Positions 5,428 to 32,695 of a stretch of DNA of 64,000 nucleotides are shown here, one piece after another. Source of the stretch: Prosthecobacter sp. (GTDB lineage Bacteria; Verrucomicrobiota; Verrucomicrobiia; Verrucomicrobiales; Verrucomicrobiaceae); assembly GCA_021733925.1 (NCBI GenBank), contig JAIPJY010000027.1, positions 1 through 64,000 of the forward strand, read 5' to 3'. Under the pieces are notes generated by a model that made no database searches, had not been told where the DNA came from, and worked only from the letters and a program-made list of their open reading frames with translations. Each line of letters begins with the position of its first letter. Positions within the stretch are counted from its first letter, which is position 1. Both the position numbers and the translations under genes were made by a program.

Positions 5428-7770
5428 TCACCCCAGCACATTCTCGCCGCGATTTTCCTGCTGCTGGAGCGTTACGGGCCAGCCGGGAAACTGATTCGTG
5501 GGCTTGCCGTCGGTGGCGTCGATGAGAAAGCGGAAGGACTCGATGAAGTAGGTCTTCTTCACCGTGTCGAAGGTGATGAAGCCAAAGCCGCTGCCTTTCT
5601 CGTGCGCCTTGTCGTAGCGGTTCGCTGCCTTGCCGACCTCCGGGTTGCCCACGGCATACACGTAGGCCTTGTTGCCCAGCCCGTCGATGAATTCGCCCGT
5701 GTTGGCCTGCCCATGCTTGGGCCGGTTCTCGTGCGGCATCTTCATTTCATCCGGCCGCCACCAGCGCGGATACCCGGCGGAGATGGCCGGCGTGCAGAAG
5801 GACCAGTTGCTGTCGCGCTGCTTTTCCACACCGTACTGCGTCAGCGTGGTGAGATGCTGGTCGCCATTGATGTGCAGCGCCATGGAGGGGCGTATGATTT
5901 CCACCGCACGATTGCGCGGCGTCTGCGGCCAGCCACCGGAATCGAGATCGGCTTTGAGATAGCCATCCGGCCCGCCATGATGTGTCGCCACATTGGCAAA
6001 CACCGTCTGGCTGAGCATGGCCTTCAGCGTGTGCCCGCGCCAGTCCTGCGCCCATTTTTTGAGAAACTCCTCCTGGCGCTCGCCCAGCAGCACCAGACCC
6101 GGTTTGTCGAGCTTGGAGGTGTCAAAATTCTGGTCAGGCACGTGATCGGCGCGGCCACTGCCCGTATCCACATGCTCCGGCCCGCTCTTCCACTGACGGT
6201 CGGCGATGATCGCAAAGCTGACGCCACCGTACAACATGTCGCCGTAATAAACGCTGATGTCCTGCAGCACCGGCTTGGGATCATACGCATCCGGATGATG
6301 CGCCACGTTGGTCCTGTGCACCACGTTGACCATCTTCGCCGGTTCGATGTAGCCGCCCTTGGAGGATGCGCCCGTGTCGCCCACCTCCATTTTCTTGCCG
6401 CCCTCGCCCCAGATGTTGCCTTGAAACACATCGTGATCATCCGGCAGGCAGAGCGTGGGCGCATTGCGCATCACTTCGCGGAAGGCCCAGCCGTGCTGGT
6501 AAAACTTGCGCAGGTAGTTCAGGATCGCGGGCTCGGCGGGTTCACGGATGATGCCAAAGCCACCGTGGTTCTCATAGATCTGGTCGCCGGAGAAAAAGAC
6601 GAGATCAGGATCAAGCTTCAGCAAATTCTGCGCCACGGGCGCATAAGGGAAGCCGTAGTCGTTCTGGCAGGTCAGCGCCGCCATGCGCAGCGGTCGGCCC
6701 TCGGGGTTCGCCTTGATCGTGCCGCTCCACTCATGCGGCGTCTCGCTGCCGTCCGTGTGTTTCTCAAGGTACACCACCTTGTAGGGCGTGGCCTGCTTCG
6801 CATCCCACTTCGGAATGCGGAACGTCGCCACCCACGCGTCGGGATCCAGCTTCGCCTCGCCGAGCGATTTCCACGCGCCACCCTTCTGCACCTGCAGCTC
6901 GACCACCTGGCTGTCTTTCGCTCCCATCGGACCCGTGAGCGCGCTGAGCTTCATCACAAAGCCATCGTCGGTGCGTGAGTCGCTCAGCGAGTACATCGAC
7001 CACAGCAACGGCCCAAACTGATGCTCCGGAGTCACCGTGAAAGCATTGCCTTCCATCGTCCAGTTTTGAAAACGGTAGCGTCCAGCACCTCCAGCACCGG
7101 CCTTGCCCTTGTTCTTCTTCGCTCCCGCCACCGCACCGGCGGCGAAGTTGTTGGCGATCGATACATTGCCAAGAATCGCGTCTGCATCGAACGCATGCGA
7201 GACCACCGCCAGCTCCACACCAGAGTCTGCGGAATTCGCTGTGAGCGTCAGCAGACACTTGTCATCCTCGGCTGCGCCCTTGAGTGTCAGACGCACTTGC
7301 TTCAAAGAACTGCCATCTTTGAGCGGCACCGTTTTCGGTCCCAACACGAGCTGATCGCCCTGCCACCCGGCATTGATGCCCTTCTGCACAAAGCAGTTGC
7401 TGCGATGCTCATTGAGCTCACTTCGAATGCCAATGCGAAAGCCCGCGCCGCCGTCGGACTTGCCAATTTCCAGCCGCGTCAGCATCACGCTCATGGTGAA
7501 GTCCCCGTTTCGTTTCACCTGATGCGTCAGCGAATGCACGCTGCGCCCGCCGCCCATGCTGAGGCACTCCGCGCCGCTTTCGCTCACGCGCCAGTCTTCC
7601 ATGGGATTGGCCCAAAACTCACCGCCAAGAAAGACGCGGCCATGGGTGTTGGCCCAGACATCCTTTGGTGCGTCGGGAGCAGCAGGAGCGTTATCACGGC
7701 CTGCGAGGCCCATGAGGGTTCCTGCCGTCATCAACTTGAGTCCGGTGCGTCGGGAGATCTTTCGTTTCAT
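5428..7770 (-). CDS. PhoD-like alkaline phosphatase, Tat-exported
   Basis: Encodes 780 residues. The N-terminus [13 protein letters not shown] is a twin-arginine signal, fitting export of a folded metalloenzyme. Residues about 35-230 look like a beta-sandwich (LamG or 3-keto-disaccharide-hydrolase-like) module, and the rest is a PhoD-type metallophosphatase with likely metal-binding blocks [23 protein letters not shown] and [11 protein letters not shown]. PhoD enzymes hydrolyse phosphate mono- or diesters in the periplasm. The long N-terminal module is unusual for textbook PhoD but common in PVC bacteria. The ATG at 7770 is used because it starts directly at the Tat signal; the frame is open 13 codons further. 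Confidence 0.85.
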
Positions 7771-25481: not shown

Positions 25482-26051
25482 TTAATCCAACCCCAAGTCT
25501 TCGATAAACCGCTTGTCTTCACCGTACTTTTCTTCCGGCAGGCCAAGCTGGTCGAGAATGATGTGTTTGACGATCAAAGCAATGTCTCCCCGGGTTAAAG
25601 CCTGTCGCTCGTCATCGGTGAGATGCTGAAGTTGATTCTCAGACATCCAGTCAGACAGGTCCCCGAGCGTTTTGAGTTGAGAGGGAAAGTCCGTGCTGAG
25701 CCCGAACCATCGCAGGCGCGGCCAAGTTTTGACATCGAGGTCCTCTTTGAGCTGCCGCCACTGCTGACGGCGTAAACCAAGATCAGCGAAAAACTCATCA
25801 AGTTTTTGATCTCTCATCACTGCATCATCAACCATGCCCGCATTCTGCAAAGCATGGGTCAGTTGCACCCAGGCAGTCTCTTCTTTAGCCCGAATGACGT
25901 CGGCATGGCCCTCCACTTTCGCATCCAGCTTGGCGACGATGCAGTCAATGACATCACGAGGTGTGCGCATCTTTTCAGCTTCCTGATCCAAGATCGAAAT
26001 CTGAAATACTTCCTCAAATGCCATAACAAGTTCAACGCTATCGAGGCCCAT
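25482..26051 (-). CDS. Acyl-carrier-protein-like protein with permuted halves
   Basis: Encodes 189 residues. It opens with MGLDSVELVMAFEEVF, the phosphopantetheine Ser motif and helix II of an acyl carrier protein, without the preceding helix I. It closes with LILDQLGLPEEKYGEDK-type sequence and FIEDLGLD, which is ACP helix I and the residues just before the Ser. Joining the end to the beginning would rebuild one normal carrier domain. The middle (about 50-150) is a helical segment of unknown function. In frame upstream there is a stop 15 codons away (26095-26097), so no longer form exists. It follows the sulfatase operon by 43 bases. Confidence 0.6.
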   Translation of the reverse strand: MGLDSVELVMAFEEVFQISILDQEAEKMRTPRDVIDCIVAKLDAKVEGHADVIRAKEETAWVQLTHALQNAGMVDDAVMRDQKLDEFFADLGLRRQQWRQLKEDLDVKTWPRLRWFGLSTDFPSQLKTLGDLSDWMSENQLQHLTDDERQALTRGDIALIVKHIILDQLGLPEEKYGEDKRFIEDLGLD

Positions 26052-26094
26052 GTCGTGTTTTGGCCTTTGAGCGGGGAAGAGGCAAGCTCTTCAT

Positions 26095-27975
26095 TCAAAA
26101 CTCCGTCCGCGTCACCTTGCCACCGTCCGTAGAACGAAGCTCAATCCAGTCGATCTCGACAGGCTGCTCCTGCATGGGGAGATAAAGACGCACGATGCCG
26201 AGCGGACCGGTGGCGGGGAGTTGCACGGTGACCTCCTGCCAGTCGTCGCCTTTCAGTGTGAAGGGCACACGCTGGGCTTTGCCGCCACTGGGCAACCAGT
26301 CGAAATGCGAGGTGCCGACTTTGGCCTTGATGCGGAAGGTGGCGGTGCTCGGGCCGCTGTGCTTGCCGGCGGCGAATCCAAAATAGCATTCAAAGCCGAT
26401 GTTCGTCACACGCACGATGCTGCCTTTGACCGTCGCTTTGCAGTCGCGCGCCTTCCAGCCTTGCAGAGCGGGATCGCTGACGTCTTTCACAGGCGCTTTC
26501 GCCTTGACCTTCGGCTGCTGCTTGCCCTCGAGTTCGGGGTGGTACTGCTTGGGATCAAAGGCCGGATTCACCACCGGCACCACGGCATGCGTGTCCTTGA
26601 GAAAGGCTTCAATCAGCGCGTCCAGTTCCGCCACCAGCGCAGGCTGCTGAGTAGCGAGGCTTGTTTTCTCGCCGGGATCGTCCTTCAGATTGAACAGCAG
26701 GTAACGATGCGCGCCCTTCTCTCCGCCGTGAAAAATGCGGATGAGCTTCCAGTCATCGCGATGCACGGACACCGCTGGCGGCAGCCAGTCGGGCACGACC
26801 GTATAATGCGGGAAGTACTGGAAGATGGCCTTGCCGGGGAGATCGCCGCCTTTCAGCGCAGGCATAATGCTGCTGCCATCAAAGCGCTGCTCCGGCGCGG
26901 GCTTGATCGCCAGCCCGTCGAGCAGTGTGGGGTAGAAGTCCTCGCTCTGCACCAGAGCTTGGCTGCGGCTGCCAGCGGTGGTGATTCCCGGCCAGACGAT
27001 GATCTCAGGCACCCGCGTGCCGCCTTCGAACAGGCATGCCTTGCCACCACGCAGCGGCGCGTTGCTGGTGGGCGTGGTGTCATCCACCTTGTCATACATG
27101 TTGCCGCCGTTGTCGGAAGTGAAGAGGATGATCGTGTTGTCGGCGATCTTGAGCCGGTCGAGTGTGTCCAGCAGCGTGCCCACGGCGTCATCCATGCTCT
27201 CGACCATCGCGGCATACGTCGGGCTGCGCTGCGGATCGGCAGGATTCACGCGGGCACGGTGCTTTTCGATGAGCGCCTTCTTCGCATCAAACGGCGCATG
27301 CACGCTGAACATCCAGTAGTTCAGATAGAACGGCCCATCCCGATGCTTCTCCATGAAGGCCACGGCTTCCTTGGCCATGCGGTCCTCGATGTGCTGATCC
27401 GGCACGTCGGGGTCCGCATCAAAATCCGCAAACTTCCACGGCGCGATGTAGCTGCCCGCCGGACCCGGGCCTGGATGATGCGGCACATCGACATCAAAAC
27501 CCTGCTGCAAAGGCGAAAAGGGTTCCGGGCCGAGGTGCCATTTGCCAAAATGCCCCGTGGCATAGCCAGCATCGTGCAGCGTCTCCGCCAGCGTGCGGTA
27601 CTCAGTCTTCAATCGCGTCGGCGGCGTGGGTTGAATCGCCTTCTGATTTGGAGCCGCTTTTTTGGGAAGAGTCGCCTCCAGCACCACCTGCGGCATGTGG
27701 CAGTTGGGAATGGTGATGCCCGTGCGTGCCGGACTCAGTCCGGTGAGAAGCGCCGAACGCGTGGGCGAGCACAGCGGACTGGCCGCATACGCCCGCGTGA
27801 AGGTCATGCCGCGTTTCGCCAGACGCTCGACATTCGGTGTCTGGTAAAACTTCGTCGTGCCGTAGAGCGTCGTGTCACTCCAGCCGAGATCATCGGCAAA
27901 AATGATGACGACGTTCGGCTGCGTTGCAAAGAGCGCAGGGCCAAGAGCAAGGAAGCAGAGCAAAAATCGTTTCAT
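26095..27975 (-). CDS. Sulfatase with C-terminal carbohydrate-binding-like domain (C)
   Basis: Encodes 626 residues: signal peptide (1-18), [25 protein letters not shown] (Cys 69), [17 protein letters not shown], and a C-terminal beta-sandwich of about 110 residues (from [12 protein letters not shown] to [11 protein letters not shown]), preceded by a Lys/Pro linker. The tail resembles sugar-binding or jellyroll modules of PVC sulfatases. Last sulfatase of the four-gene operon; start overlaps the sulfatase D stop by 4 bases. Confidence 0.9.
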
Positions 27976-29723
27976 CGTGAAGCAGATTTGAAATCAAGCG
28001 TGCGAAACTGGGCGGGGCCAGTTGGAAGATGCACACGCACATGAATGACACGGCCTTTGACGGGTATCTGTACTTCGTGCGTCTGCCAGTCGTCATTGGC
28101 CTTCACTTCAAACGGGACGCGATTCGCAGGGAGGAAGTCTTTGTCTCCGTCCATGCGCCAGGCGACAGCCCCCTGACCAGATGCAGCGGTTTTGAAGGTG
28201 ACTTTGGCAGTAACAGGGCCCGCGAGTTTGAGCTGGCTGCGCGTGATGAACATACCTTTGCCGCCTTTGTCCGGTGTGAGCACAAGAACGCCCTCTTTGT
28301 CGATCAAGCTGCCGCCACGCGCGAGCCAGCCGCTCGTGCCGGTGCCTTCGGGTTCGGGCTTCGGTGCGGGTTTGCCTTCGAGGTAGTAGTCGAAGTAGTC
28401 ATTCCAAACCTTTGCCATCGGTCCAAGAGCAAGGCCGGGTGGATTGAGCTCCGCGCACCACGCCGTGAGCTTCGTGCGCAGACGTGCGGCGACATCAGGA
28501 TGCTGCGAGGCGAGGTTGTGCTTCTCCTCCAGATCCGTGGAGAGGTCGTAGAGATACTCGCGCTCACCACCGCGCAGAAGTTTCCAGTTTCCCTCGCGGA
28601 TGGCGCTCTGAGCCATCCAGCGCCACATCAGCGCCTCATGCGGCGCAGTGGTGATCTCGCCTTTGAGATAAGGAACCAGATTCACCCCGTCGAGGTCTCC
28701 GGGCTTCACGGAAATGCCCGCCAAAGAAGCAGCCGTGGCGGCGACATCAAGCGCGCTCACGGGATGCTCGTACGTCTGGCCACCGCGAATCGTGCCGGGC
28801 CACGAGATGAGAAACGGCACATGCATGCCGCCTTCGGCCAGCATGCCTTTTTCACCATTGAGCGGTGTGTTCAGGCTGCCATCCCAGCCACCGGCGTCGC
28901 CATCCAGTGGCGAGTCGGTCTTGAGGATCTTCAGCGGCGCGCCGTTGTCACCGATGACGAAGATGAGCGTCTTCTCAGTGAGGCCGTTTGTTTTCAGCGT
29001 GCTCGTGATGAGCCTCACCCCATCATCCACAGCGGCCAGCATGCCCAGCGCGGCGCGGCGGCGCTCAGGCATCGCTCCGGGAAAGCGTTCCTTGTACGAC
29101 TGGGGCGCATCCAGCGGTGTGTGCGGGGCACGGAAGGCAATGTAAAGAAAGAAGGGCTGCTCCTTGTAGCGCTCGATGATCGATGCCGCCGCCTTTGCGC
29201 AACCATCCACATGATACATCGTCGGCGGCAGATCTCCCATTGGCTTGTCCTTGCCCTCAAGCGTGATGTTGGCGGAAAACCTCTGCTGGCCGTGTTGCGC
29301 AAAGGAATGCGTGAAACCGTGCATCGGGATCTCCGCCATGGGGCCCAGGTGCCATTTGCCAAACTGCGCCGTCACATACCCTGAACGCTGCAGGCGCGTG
29401 GCGATGGTGGTTTCCTTGTCGAAGCCCTCCAGCGAGGAGTTGTTGCTGTCTAGATTGAAGCGCCCTTGGAACTTCCCCGTCATCAATCCACCACGCGAAG
29501 GCACGCACTGCGGCGCGCTGCTGTAACCATGTTTGGCAACGACGCCGCTGCGGGCCAGCGCATCGAGATGCGGCGTTTTCACATCCGGCTCCACGCCACG
29601 GATGCCAAGATCGGCAAAGCCGTGGTCATCCGTGTAAATGACGATGATGTTGGGTTTCTCGGCGGAGTTGGCTGAAACAACCAAGCTGCTGAACGATAAA
29701 AAATAGACGAGGAGGCGCTTCAT
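27972..29723 (-). CDS. Sulfatase with C-terminal beta-sandwich (D)
   Basis: Encodes 583 residues with signal peptide (1-20), [25 protein letters not shown] (Cys 73; Val rather than the usual Ser or Ala after Cys), GKWHLG and VIGDNGAP metal site. About 100 C-terminal residues ([20 protein letters not shown]) form a second beta-rich domain like that of sulfatase C. It overlaps genes on both sides by 4 bases, so the order E-D-C is strongly operonic. Confidence 0.9.
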
Positions 29724-31129
29724 GGGCGATTTTTCTTCTTGGGCGGCATCAGTGCGTTGGCTTCATTGTCCACATGGCCGGGCACCACGGCGTCTTTGAG
29801 GAACTCGGCCAGCCTGGCGCGCATAACGGCGGTGCGTTCAGGCTCTTGAGCAGCGAGGTTTTCTTTCTCGCCGATGTCCGTGGCAAGGTTGTAGAGTGCG
29901 AGAGTTTCACCGGATTCAGCGGCCTTCGCTTTGCCCTTTTTGCCTCTCGCCTTGGGAGCTCCTTCGCTGTCGGTAGTGCCGCCGTTCATGACGAGCTTCC
30001 AGTCACCCATGCGCAAGGCGGCGACGGTGAGGGATTGAACACACAGGATGGCGTCGTGCGGAGACGGTGCGCCTTGCGTGAGCATGGGCCATACGTCCTT
30101 GCCATCCAACTCGGTCTTCTGCTCCAGCGATCCTCCGGCGAGTTTTACCAGCGTGGGATACCAGTCCACCGTGTGCATGGGCTCCTTGATGCGCTTGCCT
30201 GCCGGAATGTGTCCGGGCCAGTTCGCAAAGGCACAGCCGCGCACGCCGCCTTCATAGATGCTGCCCTTGAAGCCGCGCAGCGGGGTGTTGTCACCTGGAG
30301 GCGGGCCGCCGTTGTCGGTAGAGAAGATGATGAGCGTGTTGTCACGCTGGCCGGTGCTTTCCAAAGCGGCGACGATTTGCCCGATGGCCTCGTCTACGGC
30401 CGCCAGCATGCCGGCGAGTTTTTGCCGGTTGCCCTTCAGCTCACCATAGGGCTTGAGATATTCATCCGGTGTCTGAAAGGGTGAGTGCACAGCATTGAAC
30501 GGCACGTAGATAAAGAGTGGTTTTGCTTTGTCTTTTTCCGTGATGATGCGGCAGGCCTCACGCGCGATGAGGTGCGTGGTGTAGCCTTCCTCCTTGAGCA
30601 GCTCGCCTTCCTGGTACCAGTCGAGATCCTCGCCGCGCAGGTGGGTGAAGTAGTCGAGCATGCCAAAATAATGACCGTATTGGTGGTCAAAACCGCGTGC
30701 CTTGGGCAGGTAGGCGGGCTCAAACTCACCGAGGTGCCACTTGCCAGTGATGGCGGTGGCGTAGCCCGCATCATGCAGCGCATTGGCCAGCGTGCGTTCG
30801 GTAAGCGGCAGACCCCACGACGCATGCGGGCGCACGATGGTATAAACACCCGTGTGCGTGGCGTAGCGGCCGGTCATCAGCGTCGCACGCGTGGGCGAGC
30901 ACACCGGCTGCACGTAGAGCGAATCCAGCACGGTGCCCTCAGCCGCCAGTTTGTCGATGCTGGGCGTGTGGATTTCCTTGCCGCCATTGAAGCCGCAGTC
31001 CGCATAGCCGAGATCGTCAATGAGCAGAAAGACGATGTTGGGTTGTTTCTCGGCAGCGAATGATGCCGCCGGAGTGAAGACTGAGGCAAGCAGCAGGGCG
31101 AGTGCGAAGGCGCAGCGGTGGGATTTCAT
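29720..31129 (-). CDS. Sulfatase, arylsulfatase-B-like (E)
   Basis: Encodes 469 residues with a signal peptide (1-25). LIDDLGYADCGFNGG, CSPTRATLMTG (Cys 77), TIVRPHASWGLPL, GKWHLGEFEPAYLP and FSTDNGGPPPG match arylsulfatase B-like or I/J-like enzymes that act on hexosamine or uronate sulfates. The C-terminus has a KARGKKGKAKAAE linker and ends KKKNRP, a basic tail. The ATG at 31129 is used; the upstream codons are not signal-like. It is 37 bases downstream of sulfatase F. Confidence 0.9.
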   Translation of the reverse strand: MKSHRCAFALALLLASVFTPAASFAAEKQPNIVFLLIDDLGYADCGFNGGKEIHTPSIDKLAAEGTVLDSLYVQPVCSPTRATLMTGRYATHTGVYTIVRPHASWGLPLTERTLANALHDAGYATAITGKWHLGEFEPAYLPKARGFDHQYGHYFGMLDYFTHLRGEDLDWYQEGELLKEEGYTTHLIAREACRIITEKDKAKPLFIYVPFNAVHSPFQTPDEYLKPYGELKGNRQKLAGMLAAVDEAIGQIVAALESTGQRDNTLIIFSTDNGGPPPGDNTPLRGFKGSIYEGGVRGCAFANWPGHIPAGKRIKEPMHTVDWYPTLVKLAGGSLEQKTELDGKDVWPMLTQGAPSPHDAILCVQSLTVAALRMGDWKLVMNGGTTDSEGAPKARGKKGKAKAAESGETLALYNLATDIGEKENLAAQEPERTAVMRARLAEFLKDAVVPGHVDNEANALMPPKKKNRP

Positions 31130-31166
31130 GAGATGGGTTGGATGGAGAGAGAGCAGGCAGGTCTGG

Positions 31167-32591
31167 TTATTTCTTGCCGCCGTCTTTCGGTTTCTTCTGT
31201 TTGTCTGCACCGGGATCAAGCATCGTGACAGGCTGGCCGATCAGCAGAGGCGTACCGAAGACAGTTTGCTGGTCGCCTTGCTGCTGCATCCACGCATCCA
31301 CTTCGCCACGCAACAGCGTGAGGCGCTCGGTTTGCGCAGGGCCACCCGCAAGGTTGTTCAGTTCGAAAGGGTCGCTCTTGAGGTCGTAGAGCTCCTCCGA
31401 CGGACGTTCGGCGCAGCGTTTCACCACGGCGGCAGCGGCGGGGCTGGTTTTTGCCGCGGTGAGCCAGCTCTGCCAGTAGGCAAACCCGCTCGTACTCTTG
31501 CTGGAGCGTGAGATGTGGGATTGATGCTGAAACTCGGGGTGCAGGTTGCGAATGTACTTCCAGTCACGCGTGCGGACGCTGCGGATGGGATACACATTGA
31601 AGTCACCATCGCCGCTATGCGTGGTGAAGATGCGGTCCCGATGTGTCATAACCGTGCCGCGCAGGACACCGGCGAAAGACTTGCCGTCGATGCCCTCAGG
31701 CACCGTGCCGCCGCCGAGTTCGATGAAGGTGGGCAGCAGGTCCGGCCATGAAATCATGGCGTCGCTGGTGGAAGCCGCTTTCAAATGGCCCGGCCACGCC
31801 GCGATGAACGGGATGCGGATGCCCGCATCATAGAGATTCCATTTCCCAAACGGCCACTGCCCGCCGTGGTCGGCGGTGTAGATGAAGAGCGTGTCTCCCG
31901 GCACCTTGTCCTTGGCCAGCGCACGCAGTTCACCGAGCAGGATGTCCGCACGCGTGATGTCCGAGGTGTAGCGCGTTCGCTGCTCTCGCGTTTCCGCCGT
32001 GACCAAATGCGTGGGCGGCAGTTGGAGTGCGGCCGCGTCATAGCCTGCGTTTTCACCCCAGGGCACATGCGGATGCCGCGTGCCGAAGAACAGGCACAGC
32101 GGCTTGGACGCATCGCGATTGGCGAGGAACTTCGCGACTTCGACCGTGTCGGTGTCACCGATCTGATTGCCCCCCAGGACATCGAACCCATGGTCCTTGC
32201 CGTAGTTTCCATGCGCGACTTTGCCAAACGCCGCGACCTCGTACCCCAGCGCATGCAGTGCAGGCGGCAGCGAGGGCACCCCGGGGTTTTTCGCCTTGTG
32301 ATTCGGCTCCGCCCCATTGCGTGCCGGCCACAGGCCCGTGCACAGCGTCGTGCGGCTGGGACCACAGGCTGGTGAGGCGACAAAGGCATGTGTGAACTTC
32401 ATGCCTTCCGCAGCAAGCCTGGCCATGTTCGGCGTGCGAATATCCGTGGCCCCATAAGGCTCCGAATCCAGCATGCTGTGATCATCCGAGATGAACACGA
32501 CAATGTTCGGCAGCGCCGAGGTTTTCTCGGCGGCGAACAGCGGCAGGCTCAGAAAGAAGGCAGCAAGGAGCGCATAGGGCTGGATGGACAT
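31167..32591 (-). CDS. Sulfatase, N-sulfoglucosamine-sulfohydrolase-like (F)
   Basis: Encodes 474 residues. SDDHSMLDSEPYG, CGPSRTTLCTG (Cys 76) and FGKVAHGNYGKDHGFD resemble the sulfamidase branch that removes N-sulfate from glucosamine, though substrate cannot be settled. The family second metal motif appears as IYTADHGGQWPFGKWNLYD. The tail ends KQKKPKDGGKK. It heads the four-sulfatase operon; the ATG at 32591 is 104 bases from the divergent TPR gene. Confidence 0.85.
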   Translation of the reverse strand: MSIQPYALLAAFFLSLPLFAAEKTSALPNIVVFISDDHSMLDSEPYGATDIRTPNMARLAAEGMKFTHAFVASPACGPSRTTLCTGLWPARNGAEPNHKAKNPGVPSLPPALHALGYEVAAFGKVAHGNYGKDHGFDVLGGNQIGDTDTVEVAKFLANRDASKPLCLFFGTRHPHVPWGENAGYDAAALQLPPTHLVTAETREQRTRYTSDITRADILLGELRALAKDKVPGDTLFIYTADHGGQWPFGKWNLYDAGIRIPFIAAWPGHLKAASTSDAMISWPDLLPTFIELGGGTVPEGIDGKSFAGVLRGTVMTHRDRIFTTHSGDGDFNVYPIRSVRTRDWKYIRNLHPEFQHQSHISRSSKSTSGFAYWQSWLTAAKTSPAAAAVVKRCAERPSEELYDLKSDPFELNNLAGGPAQTERLTLLRGEVDAWMQQQGDQQTVFGTPLLIGQPVTMLDPGADKQKKPKDGGKK

Positions 32592-32695
32592 TCGCCAGTA
32601 ACGAACGGTCTTGCCGCAACATCTCAGCAAATGCATGCCCGATGCGGAAAGCACAGTCCGGCTGGACTCCTCCCAATGGCCGTTCACATTGAATC

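What the first reader, a model, noticed from the sequence alone, without database searches (positions are those of the whole stretch)
25482..26051. Acyl-carrier-protein halves in permuted order
The protein starts with the Ser motif half (GLDSVELVMAFEEVF) and ends just before it (EDKRFIEDLGLD), so joining end to start rebuilds one ACP. A stop in frame 15 codons upstream rules out a missed longer gene. Either a circular permutation, a recombination of a tandem array, or a carrier that works only as a dimer of swapped halves.
Basis: partly seen in the sequence, partly recalled or inferred. Interest (0 to 1): 0.7.

Follow-up and report, generated by a model that had tools for sequence, protein, structure and literature searches.

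The report
Naturally permuted acyl-carrier-like protein
A small bacterial gene encodes an acyl-carrier-protein fold whose two halves have swapped order, cut exactly where normal carriers attach their working arm; the same rearranged protein occurs in many bacterial phyla, so it is a real protein family of unknown job rather than an accident.

Summary
In detail: ORF 25482-26051(-) starts with the second half of an acyl carrier protein (ACP), ends with the first half, and is closed upstream by an in-frame TGA. The order is conserved: relatives lie in 10 phyla. Close ones are under purifying selection (dN/dS 0.13-0.26), and 20 of 20 genomes checked also hold a normal ACP with its Ser.
A gap-free join (...EDLGLD | GLDSVELV...) beat eight other arrangements in 75 of 75 proteins. 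It puts Gly2 on the phosphopantetheine Ser36 and Ser5 on residue 39. Residue 5 is Ser in only 60 of 103; Gly2 is 103 of 103, and 27 of 27 among profile-found members of the main type. So the cut lies exactly at the attachment site, and phosphopantetheine should not attach. A sister type (9 proteins) has moved ends.
AlphaFold2 models of the window protein and of an 86-residue relative are confident. Best reading: a circularly permuted, Ser-less ACP paralogue that docks ACP-handling enzymes, with a free N-terminal glycine where the arm would be. Function is unproven. Eight paper searches showed no report of it.

The parts
25482..26051 (-). Gene of the permuted, Ser-less ACP-like protein (189 aa plus TAA stop)
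   Evidence: homologues over full length; dN/dS 0.13-0.26
26046..26051 (-). Met1-Gly2: chain start. Gly2 falls on the phosphopantetheine Ser36 of normal ACP
   Evidence: gap-free join best in 75 of 75; one codon lies between the two hits on the genome's own ACP; curated NCBIfam models; Gly2 in 103 of 103 and in 5 more of 5
25920..26051 (-). Residues 1-44: second half of ACP (helices II-IV)
   Evidence: NCBIfam ACP model NF002149, residues 3-41 to profile 38-76 of 78; Foldseek 7qso_T, 44 columns, rmsd 1.5, 41% id
25596..25919 (-). Residues 45-152: middle domain, weakly ACP-like, without a DSL motif; a strongly hydrophobic stretch (probable TM hairpin) lies here in long relatives
   Evidence: hhalign of 41 middle domains against normal ACPs E 2.1e-5, three column shuffles 0.52-0.87; hydropathy
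25485..25595 (-). Residues 153-189: first half of ACP (helix I and loop 1), ending at the residue that matches Asp35
   Evidence: C-end at the same place in 94 of 103
26091..26093 (-). In-frame TGA stop upstream of the start
26095..27975 (-). Upstream gene on the same strand (arylsulfatase-like, name recalled from its sequence, no family search run), 43 bp before the ACP-like gene; a like neighbour at 43 bp in L033 and L034
24515..25393 (-). Downstream gene on the same strand (GH25 lysozyme-like, name recalled, no family search run); like neighbour in L033-L036

Best explanation
Shown by sequence: the gene encodes a natural circular permutation of the acyl carrier protein. The chain begins at the place of the phosphopantetheine serine (Met1-Gly2), runs through helices II, III and IV, passes a weakly ACP-like middle domain, and ends with helix I and loop 1 at the residue that matches Asp35. 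The core of the ACP is covered without gap or duplication; only the serine itself is replaced. Predicted: the single chain closes on itself into an ACP fold. Inferred: since no member read has a Ser at position 36, phosphopantetheinyl transferases should not load it, so it is not a phosphopantetheine carrier. It most likely works as an accessory ACP look-alike. Its helix II, the docking face of ACP (recalled knowledge), is the best kept part, so it probably docks ACP-handling enzymes or ACP-binding regulators as a permanent apo form. In many relatives it is probably tethered to the membrane by a hairpin in the middle domain. The free N-terminal glycine (after the expected removal of Met) stands where the arm would be. 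Permutation, site of the cut and lack of the Ser are about 0.9 likely; the docking function is about 0.45 likely.
For: The gap-free join scores best in 75 of 75 proteins, median 59.4 bits against 50.0 for the overlap join implied by 'Ser5 = attachment site' and 31.0 as it stands. Joined family against normal ACPs: hhalign 99.9% probability, E 6e-32, 79 columns without a gap. In the own genome's normal ACP the two hits leave exactly one codon, that of the Ser. Gly2 and Leu3 in 103 of 103, Glu7 (Glu41) in 101, Val6 (Val40) in 100, Glu13 (Glu47) in 103; C-end at the same place in 94 of 103. AlphaFold2: window protein pLDDT 91.3, pTM 0.79; 86-aa relative pLDDT 91.8, pTM 0.81. Foldseek of the window model: the two best PDB hits are named carrier proteins and the next three are chains of respiratory complexes that I take for their ACP subunit (recalled), though every E-value is above 1. 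Purifying selection among four close relatives. A normal ACP with its DSL Ser in 20 of 20 genomes that hold a permuted gene. The permuted set is one side of a branch from normal ACPs, SH-aLRT 96.
Against: Docking is inferred from conservation only; no partner gene recurs broadly beside it. A pure docking module would not be expected to need Gly2 and exact chain ends. The scan required an MGL[DE][SA]VE[LI]V-like or a TPR-like peptide, so the start is biased in those 80. The 27 profile-found members of the main type are not forced, but I sorted them by eye from the loci fetched, and set apart 9 sister-type proteins that lack the MGLD start and the DLGxD end. Most profile hits that begin at model position 3 were taken for normal ACPs and not fetched, so a short permuted protein with another residue at position 2 could hide there. 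L201 has Met for Leu3, and L203 has an extra residue after Gly2 and no C-terminal half. The tree has only 80 columns, the column of the cut among them.
Confidence: 0.55

Rival explanations
1. The termini are the working site: after Met removal the alpha-amine of Gly2, standing where the phosphopantetheine arm leaves, accepts an acyl or other group (or acts as a catalytic amine), so the protein is a carrier without a prosthetic group.
For: Gly2 in 103 of 103 and in 5 further of 5; C-end at the same place in 94 of 103 and 4 of 5. A merely structural N-cap would not demand Gly in all. A Cys at the start of the middle domain (C-x5-F-x3-R in 62 of 79 proteins of 150 aa or more) could be a second reactive group.
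Against: The sister type (9 proteins) has another start and keeps the rest. The Cys is absent from the window protein and from 14 others of the 79. No transferase was seen to recur nearby. Short members have no middle domain.
Confidence: 0.25
2. The protein works as a domain-swapped dimer or head-to-tail polymer: helix I of one chain completes helices II-IV of the next.
For: The ends of the chain are halves of one domain, which permits swapping.
Against: Single chains are predicted to close confidently; by my count links can be about 5-11 residues in short members (sequences), probably enough for closure within one chain. No oligomer was modelled.
Confidence: 0.1
3. It is a phosphopantetheine carrier loaded at Ser5, with a three-residue deletion in helix II.
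For: GLDS looks like the DSL motif; Ser5 is present in the window protein and in 60 of 103.
Against: The overlap join loses in 75 of 75; Ser5 is absent in 43 of 103, in 16 of 22 profile-found members and in 5 of 5 more.
Confidence: 0.03
4. Artefact: a missed start, an assembly error or a decaying fragment of a longer ACP gene.
For: Seven of 103 members have lost the C-end and look decayed or cut, and so has L203.
Against: In-frame stop upstream; no alternative start between the upstream stop and the ATG in 67 of 103; same ends in loci of 10 phyla; dN/dS 0.13-0.26.
Confidence: 0.01

Closest known systems
Acyl carrier protein of type II fatty acid synthesis (TIGR00517, Pfam PF00550; E. coli AcpP)
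   Same: The ACP core aligns without gaps (79 columns, E 6e-32); helix II residues are kept.
   Different: Helix order II-III-IV-I; chain cut at Ser36; Gly in place of Ser; often a middle domain and a probable TM hairpin; present besides the normal ACP.
Carriers that use a chain end instead of a prosthetic arm (LysW amino-group carrier; ThiS/MoaD), recalled, not compared here
   Same: If the Gly2 amine is used, a chain end would be the attachment point.
   Different: Other folds; they use the C-terminal end, not an N-terminal amine. A recalled analogy only.
Circularly permuted lipoate-protein ligase of Streptomyces coelicolor (only its title seen, in the reference list of PMC9307952)
   Same: Natural circular permutation of a protein of fatty-acid related metabolism.
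   Different: An enzyme with another fold (recalled).

Membership tests
Acyl carrier protein (PF00550 / TIGR00517) | Sequence similarity over the whole domain | tested here: met
   In permuted order only: joined family against normal ACPs E 6e-32; the window protein as it stands is below the Pfam cut-off (19.4 < 20.8) and the TIGR00517 cut-off (52.7 < 70.45).
Acyl carrier protein (PF00550 / TIGR00517) | Helix order I-II-III-IV in the chain | tested here: not met
   Order II-III-IV-(middle)-I.
Acyl carrier protein (PF00550 / TIGR00517) | Phosphopantetheine Ser in the DSL motif | tested here: not met
   Position 36 is Gly2 in 103 of 103; register.
Acyl carrier protein (PF00550 / TIGR00517) | Docking face of helix II (Val40, Glu41, Met44, Glu47 in E. 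coli numbering, role recalled) | tested here: met
   Conservation only: Val6 100, Glu7 101, Glu13 103 of 103; Met10 65, Leu 20, Ile 12 of 103. Binding was not tested.
Acyl carrier protein (PF00550 / TIGR00517) | Loaded by a phosphopantetheinyl transferase | not testable with these tools
   Needs an experiment; not expected without the Ser.
Domain-swapped ACP dimer | Obligate oligomer | tested here: inconclusive
   Monomer models are confident; no oligomer was modelled.

The most novel reading that the evidence does not exclude
A carrier protein that has given up phosphopantetheine: circular permutation put the chain's own start at the attachment site, and the N-terminal glycine amine (perhaps with the conserved Cys of the middle domain) takes and hands on acyl groups, so the polypeptide itself is the arm.
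Probability: 0.12. Interest if true: 0.92.

Novelty: new variant of a known kind. Interest (0 to 1): 0.7.

Why it matters
ACP is one of the most studied small proteins, and a natural circular permutation of it, cut exactly at its active serine and kept in many phyla, was not found in the eight paper searches made here. It suggests that the ACP fold has a life without its prosthetic group, and it bears on genes that automatic annotation would call 'acyl carrier protein' (one short relative, L095, passes the TIGR00517 cut-off) although they should not carry acyl chains on phosphopantetheine. If the glycine amine is used, it would be a new way of carrying a group.

Tried and rejected
Considered and rejected: a longer normal ACP starting upstream (stop codon; relatives agree); a pseudogene (dN/dS); Ser5 as attachment site; a defence system (PADLOC, 0 hits for 4 proteins at E up to 0.1); a virus gene (viral contigs: 6 pattern matches, none a relative); a partner operon (no neighbour family recurs in more than 7 of the 80 loci; the largest sets are ABC ATPases and sulfatase-like genes, names recalled). 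A plasmid search with the Aquimarina protein found one Persicobacter plasmid of 72,556 records. An alignment of the 86-aa relative with the long ones (A4) was not used for folding, because MAFFT put its helix I on the middle domain of the long ones. The VIA-align library was not available. The repeat search that showed a cassette-like array in L050 showed no such array in L049 and L064.

Literature. I saw search listings and abstract starts only, apart from the single passage around 'permuted' in PMC9307952 (a reference title). The library holds open-licence PubMed Central papers only, no preprints, so absence there is not proof of absence in print.

Full report
Observation. The ORF at 25482-26051 on the minus strand encodes 189 residues, MGLDSVELVMAFEE ... 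EDKRFIEDLGLD, followed by TAA; the frame is closed upstream by a TGA at 26091-26093 with no ATG, GTG or TTG in between. Pfam PP-binding matches only residues 3-38 of the protein as it stands and stays below its cut-off; a joined end-plus-start piece passes it. So the halves are there in reverse order.

It is conserved. A search of 56 genomes (the window's own among them) found the same kind of protein in 8 others, 87 to about 30% identical: G027, G020, G002, G030, G017, G011, G015 and, from another family of the order, G049. All nine start MGL[DE][SA] and stop at the end of a D-x-G-x-x motif. A scan of species genomes with the nine-row alignment A1 gave 84 relatives, of which the best 80 were returned. 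Leaving out four broken ones, 76 were placed by record title: Bacteroidota 21, Verrucomicrobiota 20, Pseudomonadota 10, Planctomycetota 10, Acidobacteriota 5, Melainabacteria 3, Gemmatimonadota, Thermodesulfobacteriota, Myxococcota and Lentisphaerota 1 each, unplaced 3. Many are metagenome bins, and of the phyla with one locus only Thermodesulfobacteriota rests on a named strain. Cultured strains by title include Mesonia, Aquimarina, Winogradskyella, Tenacibaculum, Pedobacter, Hymenobacter, Pelagicoccus, Bryocella and Oryzomonas. That scan used the peptide patterns MGL[DE][SA]VE[LI]V and one further stretch, so the start of those proteins is biased by selection; their end is not. Profile searches, which do not demand these letters, were run on 384 genomes of the class, 20 genomes of known loci, 119 of the class of an Aquimarina, 199 of the phylum of a Pirellulaceae and 299 of the phylum of a Parabeggiatoa. 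In the last three only 8, 11 and 11 genomes had any match at E 1e-15, some of them normal ACPs, so the family is sporadic.

Where the cut is. In the own genome's normal ACP the two parts of the query match on either side of a single codon, that of the serine (query 156-189 ends at base 76777, query 3-38 starts at 76781; sequence). An HMM of normal ACPs from related genomes (23 found, duplicates merged) was used to score nine arrangements of 75 permuted proteins (the window and 74 of the 80 loci; L061, L081, L086, L099, L101 and L112 left out). The join ...DLGxD | GLDSVEL without the Met was best in 75 of 75, median 59.4 bits; with Met 53.7, with three residues added 52.8, without the Gly 52.6, with three residues overlapped (which would make Ser5 the attachment site) 50.0, as it stands 31.0. 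The curated NCBIfam models agree: residues 3-41 of the window protein match positions 38-76 of 78 of NF002149, and residues 208-240 of the 241-residue L091 match 3-35; solved ACPs likewise (model position 3 to residue 37 of 1acp). The joined family aligns with normal ACPs over 79 columns without a gap, E 6e-32. Hence Gly2 stands on Ser36, Leu3 on Leu37, Asp4 on Asp38, Ser5 on Thr39, and the last residue on Asp35.

Conservation. Over 103 members (window, 80 loci, 22 profile-found) Gly2 and Leu3 are 103 of 103, Glu13 103, Glu7 101, Val6 100; residue 5 is Ser 60, Ala 28, Gly 9, Ile 2, Thr 2, Leu 1, His 1. In the 22 profile-found ones Gly2 is 22 of 22 and Ser5 only 6. Five further profile hits that start at model position 1 were read later: Gly2 in 5 of 5, Ser5 in none; L201 has Met for Leu3, and L203 has one extra residue after Gly2 and no C-terminal half. 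The C-end is at the same residue in 94 of 103; L116 has one residue more, L061 one less, and seven (L081, L086, L101, L112, L121, L122, L124) have lost it; in the five later ones 4 of 5. Against this, nine profile-found proteins (L161, L172, L173, L175, L176, L177, L178, L184, L191) are a sister type with the same general layout but another start and no DLGxD end, so exact ends hold for the main type, not for the whole superfamily. Most short hits that begin at model position 3 were not fetched; those read were normal ACPs. No alternative start lies between the upstream stop and the ATG in 67 of 103, and a Shine-Dalgarno-like word is present in 31 of 103 against 11.7% in background windows.

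Is it functional? Pairwise dN/dS among four close relatives (six pairs) is 0.13-0.26 over the whole gene. Each of 20 genomes that hold it gave one MGLD-type permuted gene at E 1e-10 and one further short match (G441 also a sister-type protein); all 20 short matches are normal ACPs with a DSL serine. In close relatives the neighbours are kept: the upstream gene at 43 bp in L033 and L034, the downstream one in L033-L036. Elsewhere no neighbour family recurs broadly.

Fold. AlphaFold2 of the window protein with 72 rows gives pLDDT 91.3 and pTM 0.79; of the 86-aa relative L066 with 13 rows 91.8 and 0.81, with helices at 6-16, 22-27, 31-44 and 51-66. Foldseek hits of the window model are weak (27 with E up to 10, none below 0.001); the first two are named carrier proteins, and ranks 3-5 are chains of respiratory complexes that I take for their ACP subunit (recalled). 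For L066 (110 hits with E up to 10, the best 50 shown) many are ACPs aligned over 28-43 columns, mostly at 0.5-1.2 A, which is what a sequential aligner can do with a permuted fold; other hits, such as secretagogin, cover more at poor rmsd. Coordinates were not given, so the contact of the halves is inferred from pTM.

Middle domain. Proteins fall into short (16), middle (40) and long (38) classes among the 94 in the tree. All 38 long ones, 2 of 41 mid-sized and 0 of 16 short ones have a 19-residue stretch of mean hydropathy 1.6 or more, probably a TM hairpin. The middle of 41 mid-sized ones aligns with the whole of normal ACPs at E 2.1e-5, probability 52%; that of the long ones at 4.5e-4, probability 14%; three column shuffles give 0.52-0.87. 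NCBIfam NF003757 also matches residues 53-89 of L073 with its positions 5-41. The aligned part has no DSL motif. A Cys opens it in most proteins: C-x5-F-x3-R in 62 of 79 of 150 aa or more, 39 of them with the fuller C-x-[ST]-Q-x-x-F-x-x-x-R, but not in the window protein and its closest relatives L033-L035.

Origin. On a tree of 94 permuted and 28 normal ACPs (80 columns, few; L008, L061 and the seven broken ones left out, L116 cut by its extra residue, normal ACPs thinned at 80% identity and two false rows removed by hand) the permuted ones are one side of a branch (SH-aLRT 96), so one origin is not ruled out; size class changes at least 17 times and Ser5 against other residues at least 18 times. 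Duplication of an ACP/ACP-like tandem followed by new start and stop at the same site is the simplest route, but it is not shown.

Mechanism. Shown: permutation, cut at the attachment serine, serine absent, selection in close relatives, presence beside a normal ACP. Inferred: no phosphopantetheine; docking by the conserved helix II. Open: whether the invariant N-terminal glycine is used. I rank docking without load first, a working N-terminus second, swapped oligomers third.

Novelty. None of eight paper searches listed a natural circularly permuted ACP; the 60 best PDB sequences shown of each search (of 114 and 106) are normal ACPs by name and range; the NCBIfam hits of 10 proteins and the Pfam hits of 72 were general ACP or PP-binding models and a few stray ones. 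It is a new variant of a known kind.

Noticed in passing
L050 (Winogradskyella haliclonae), whole 12.6 kb locus: Ten copies of a 44-nt intergenic repeat between small genes, all 12 listed neighbours on one strand, with partner repeats; it looks like an integron-type gene-cassette array (attC not tested), and the permuted ACP gene lies between two such repeats (5830-5873 and 6577-6617). L049 and L064 showed no such array.
   Followed up: partly
L161, L172, L173, L175, L176, L177, L178, L184, L191: A sister family with a similar permuted layout and mostly a hydrophobic middle stretch by eye, but another start and no DLGxD end; L178 has a further C-terminal part.
   Followed up: partly
middle domain of most members, e.g. 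L038 near residue 50: Conserved Cys motif C-x5-F-x3-R (62 of 79) of unknown role, also seen in several sister-type proteins.
   Followed up: partly
L110 6001-6279 and the gene 87 bp downstream: A 93-aa permuted gene lies just upstream of a normal ACP gene in a Lentisphaerae genome.
   Followed up: no
L035, L073, L080, L088: A PhyH-like dioxygenase gene (name recalled) is the nearest upstream gene of the permuted gene in a Verrucomicrobia bin, two Melainabacteria and an unplaced bacterium.
   Followed up: no
window 26095-32687: Four sulfatase-like genes in a row on the minus strand (names recalled from sequence).
   Followed up: no
L066 and L085: In two Alphaproteobacteria bins the short permuted gene is within 8 bp of a 253-aa glycosyltransferase-like gene (name recalled), on different sides.
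   Followed up: no
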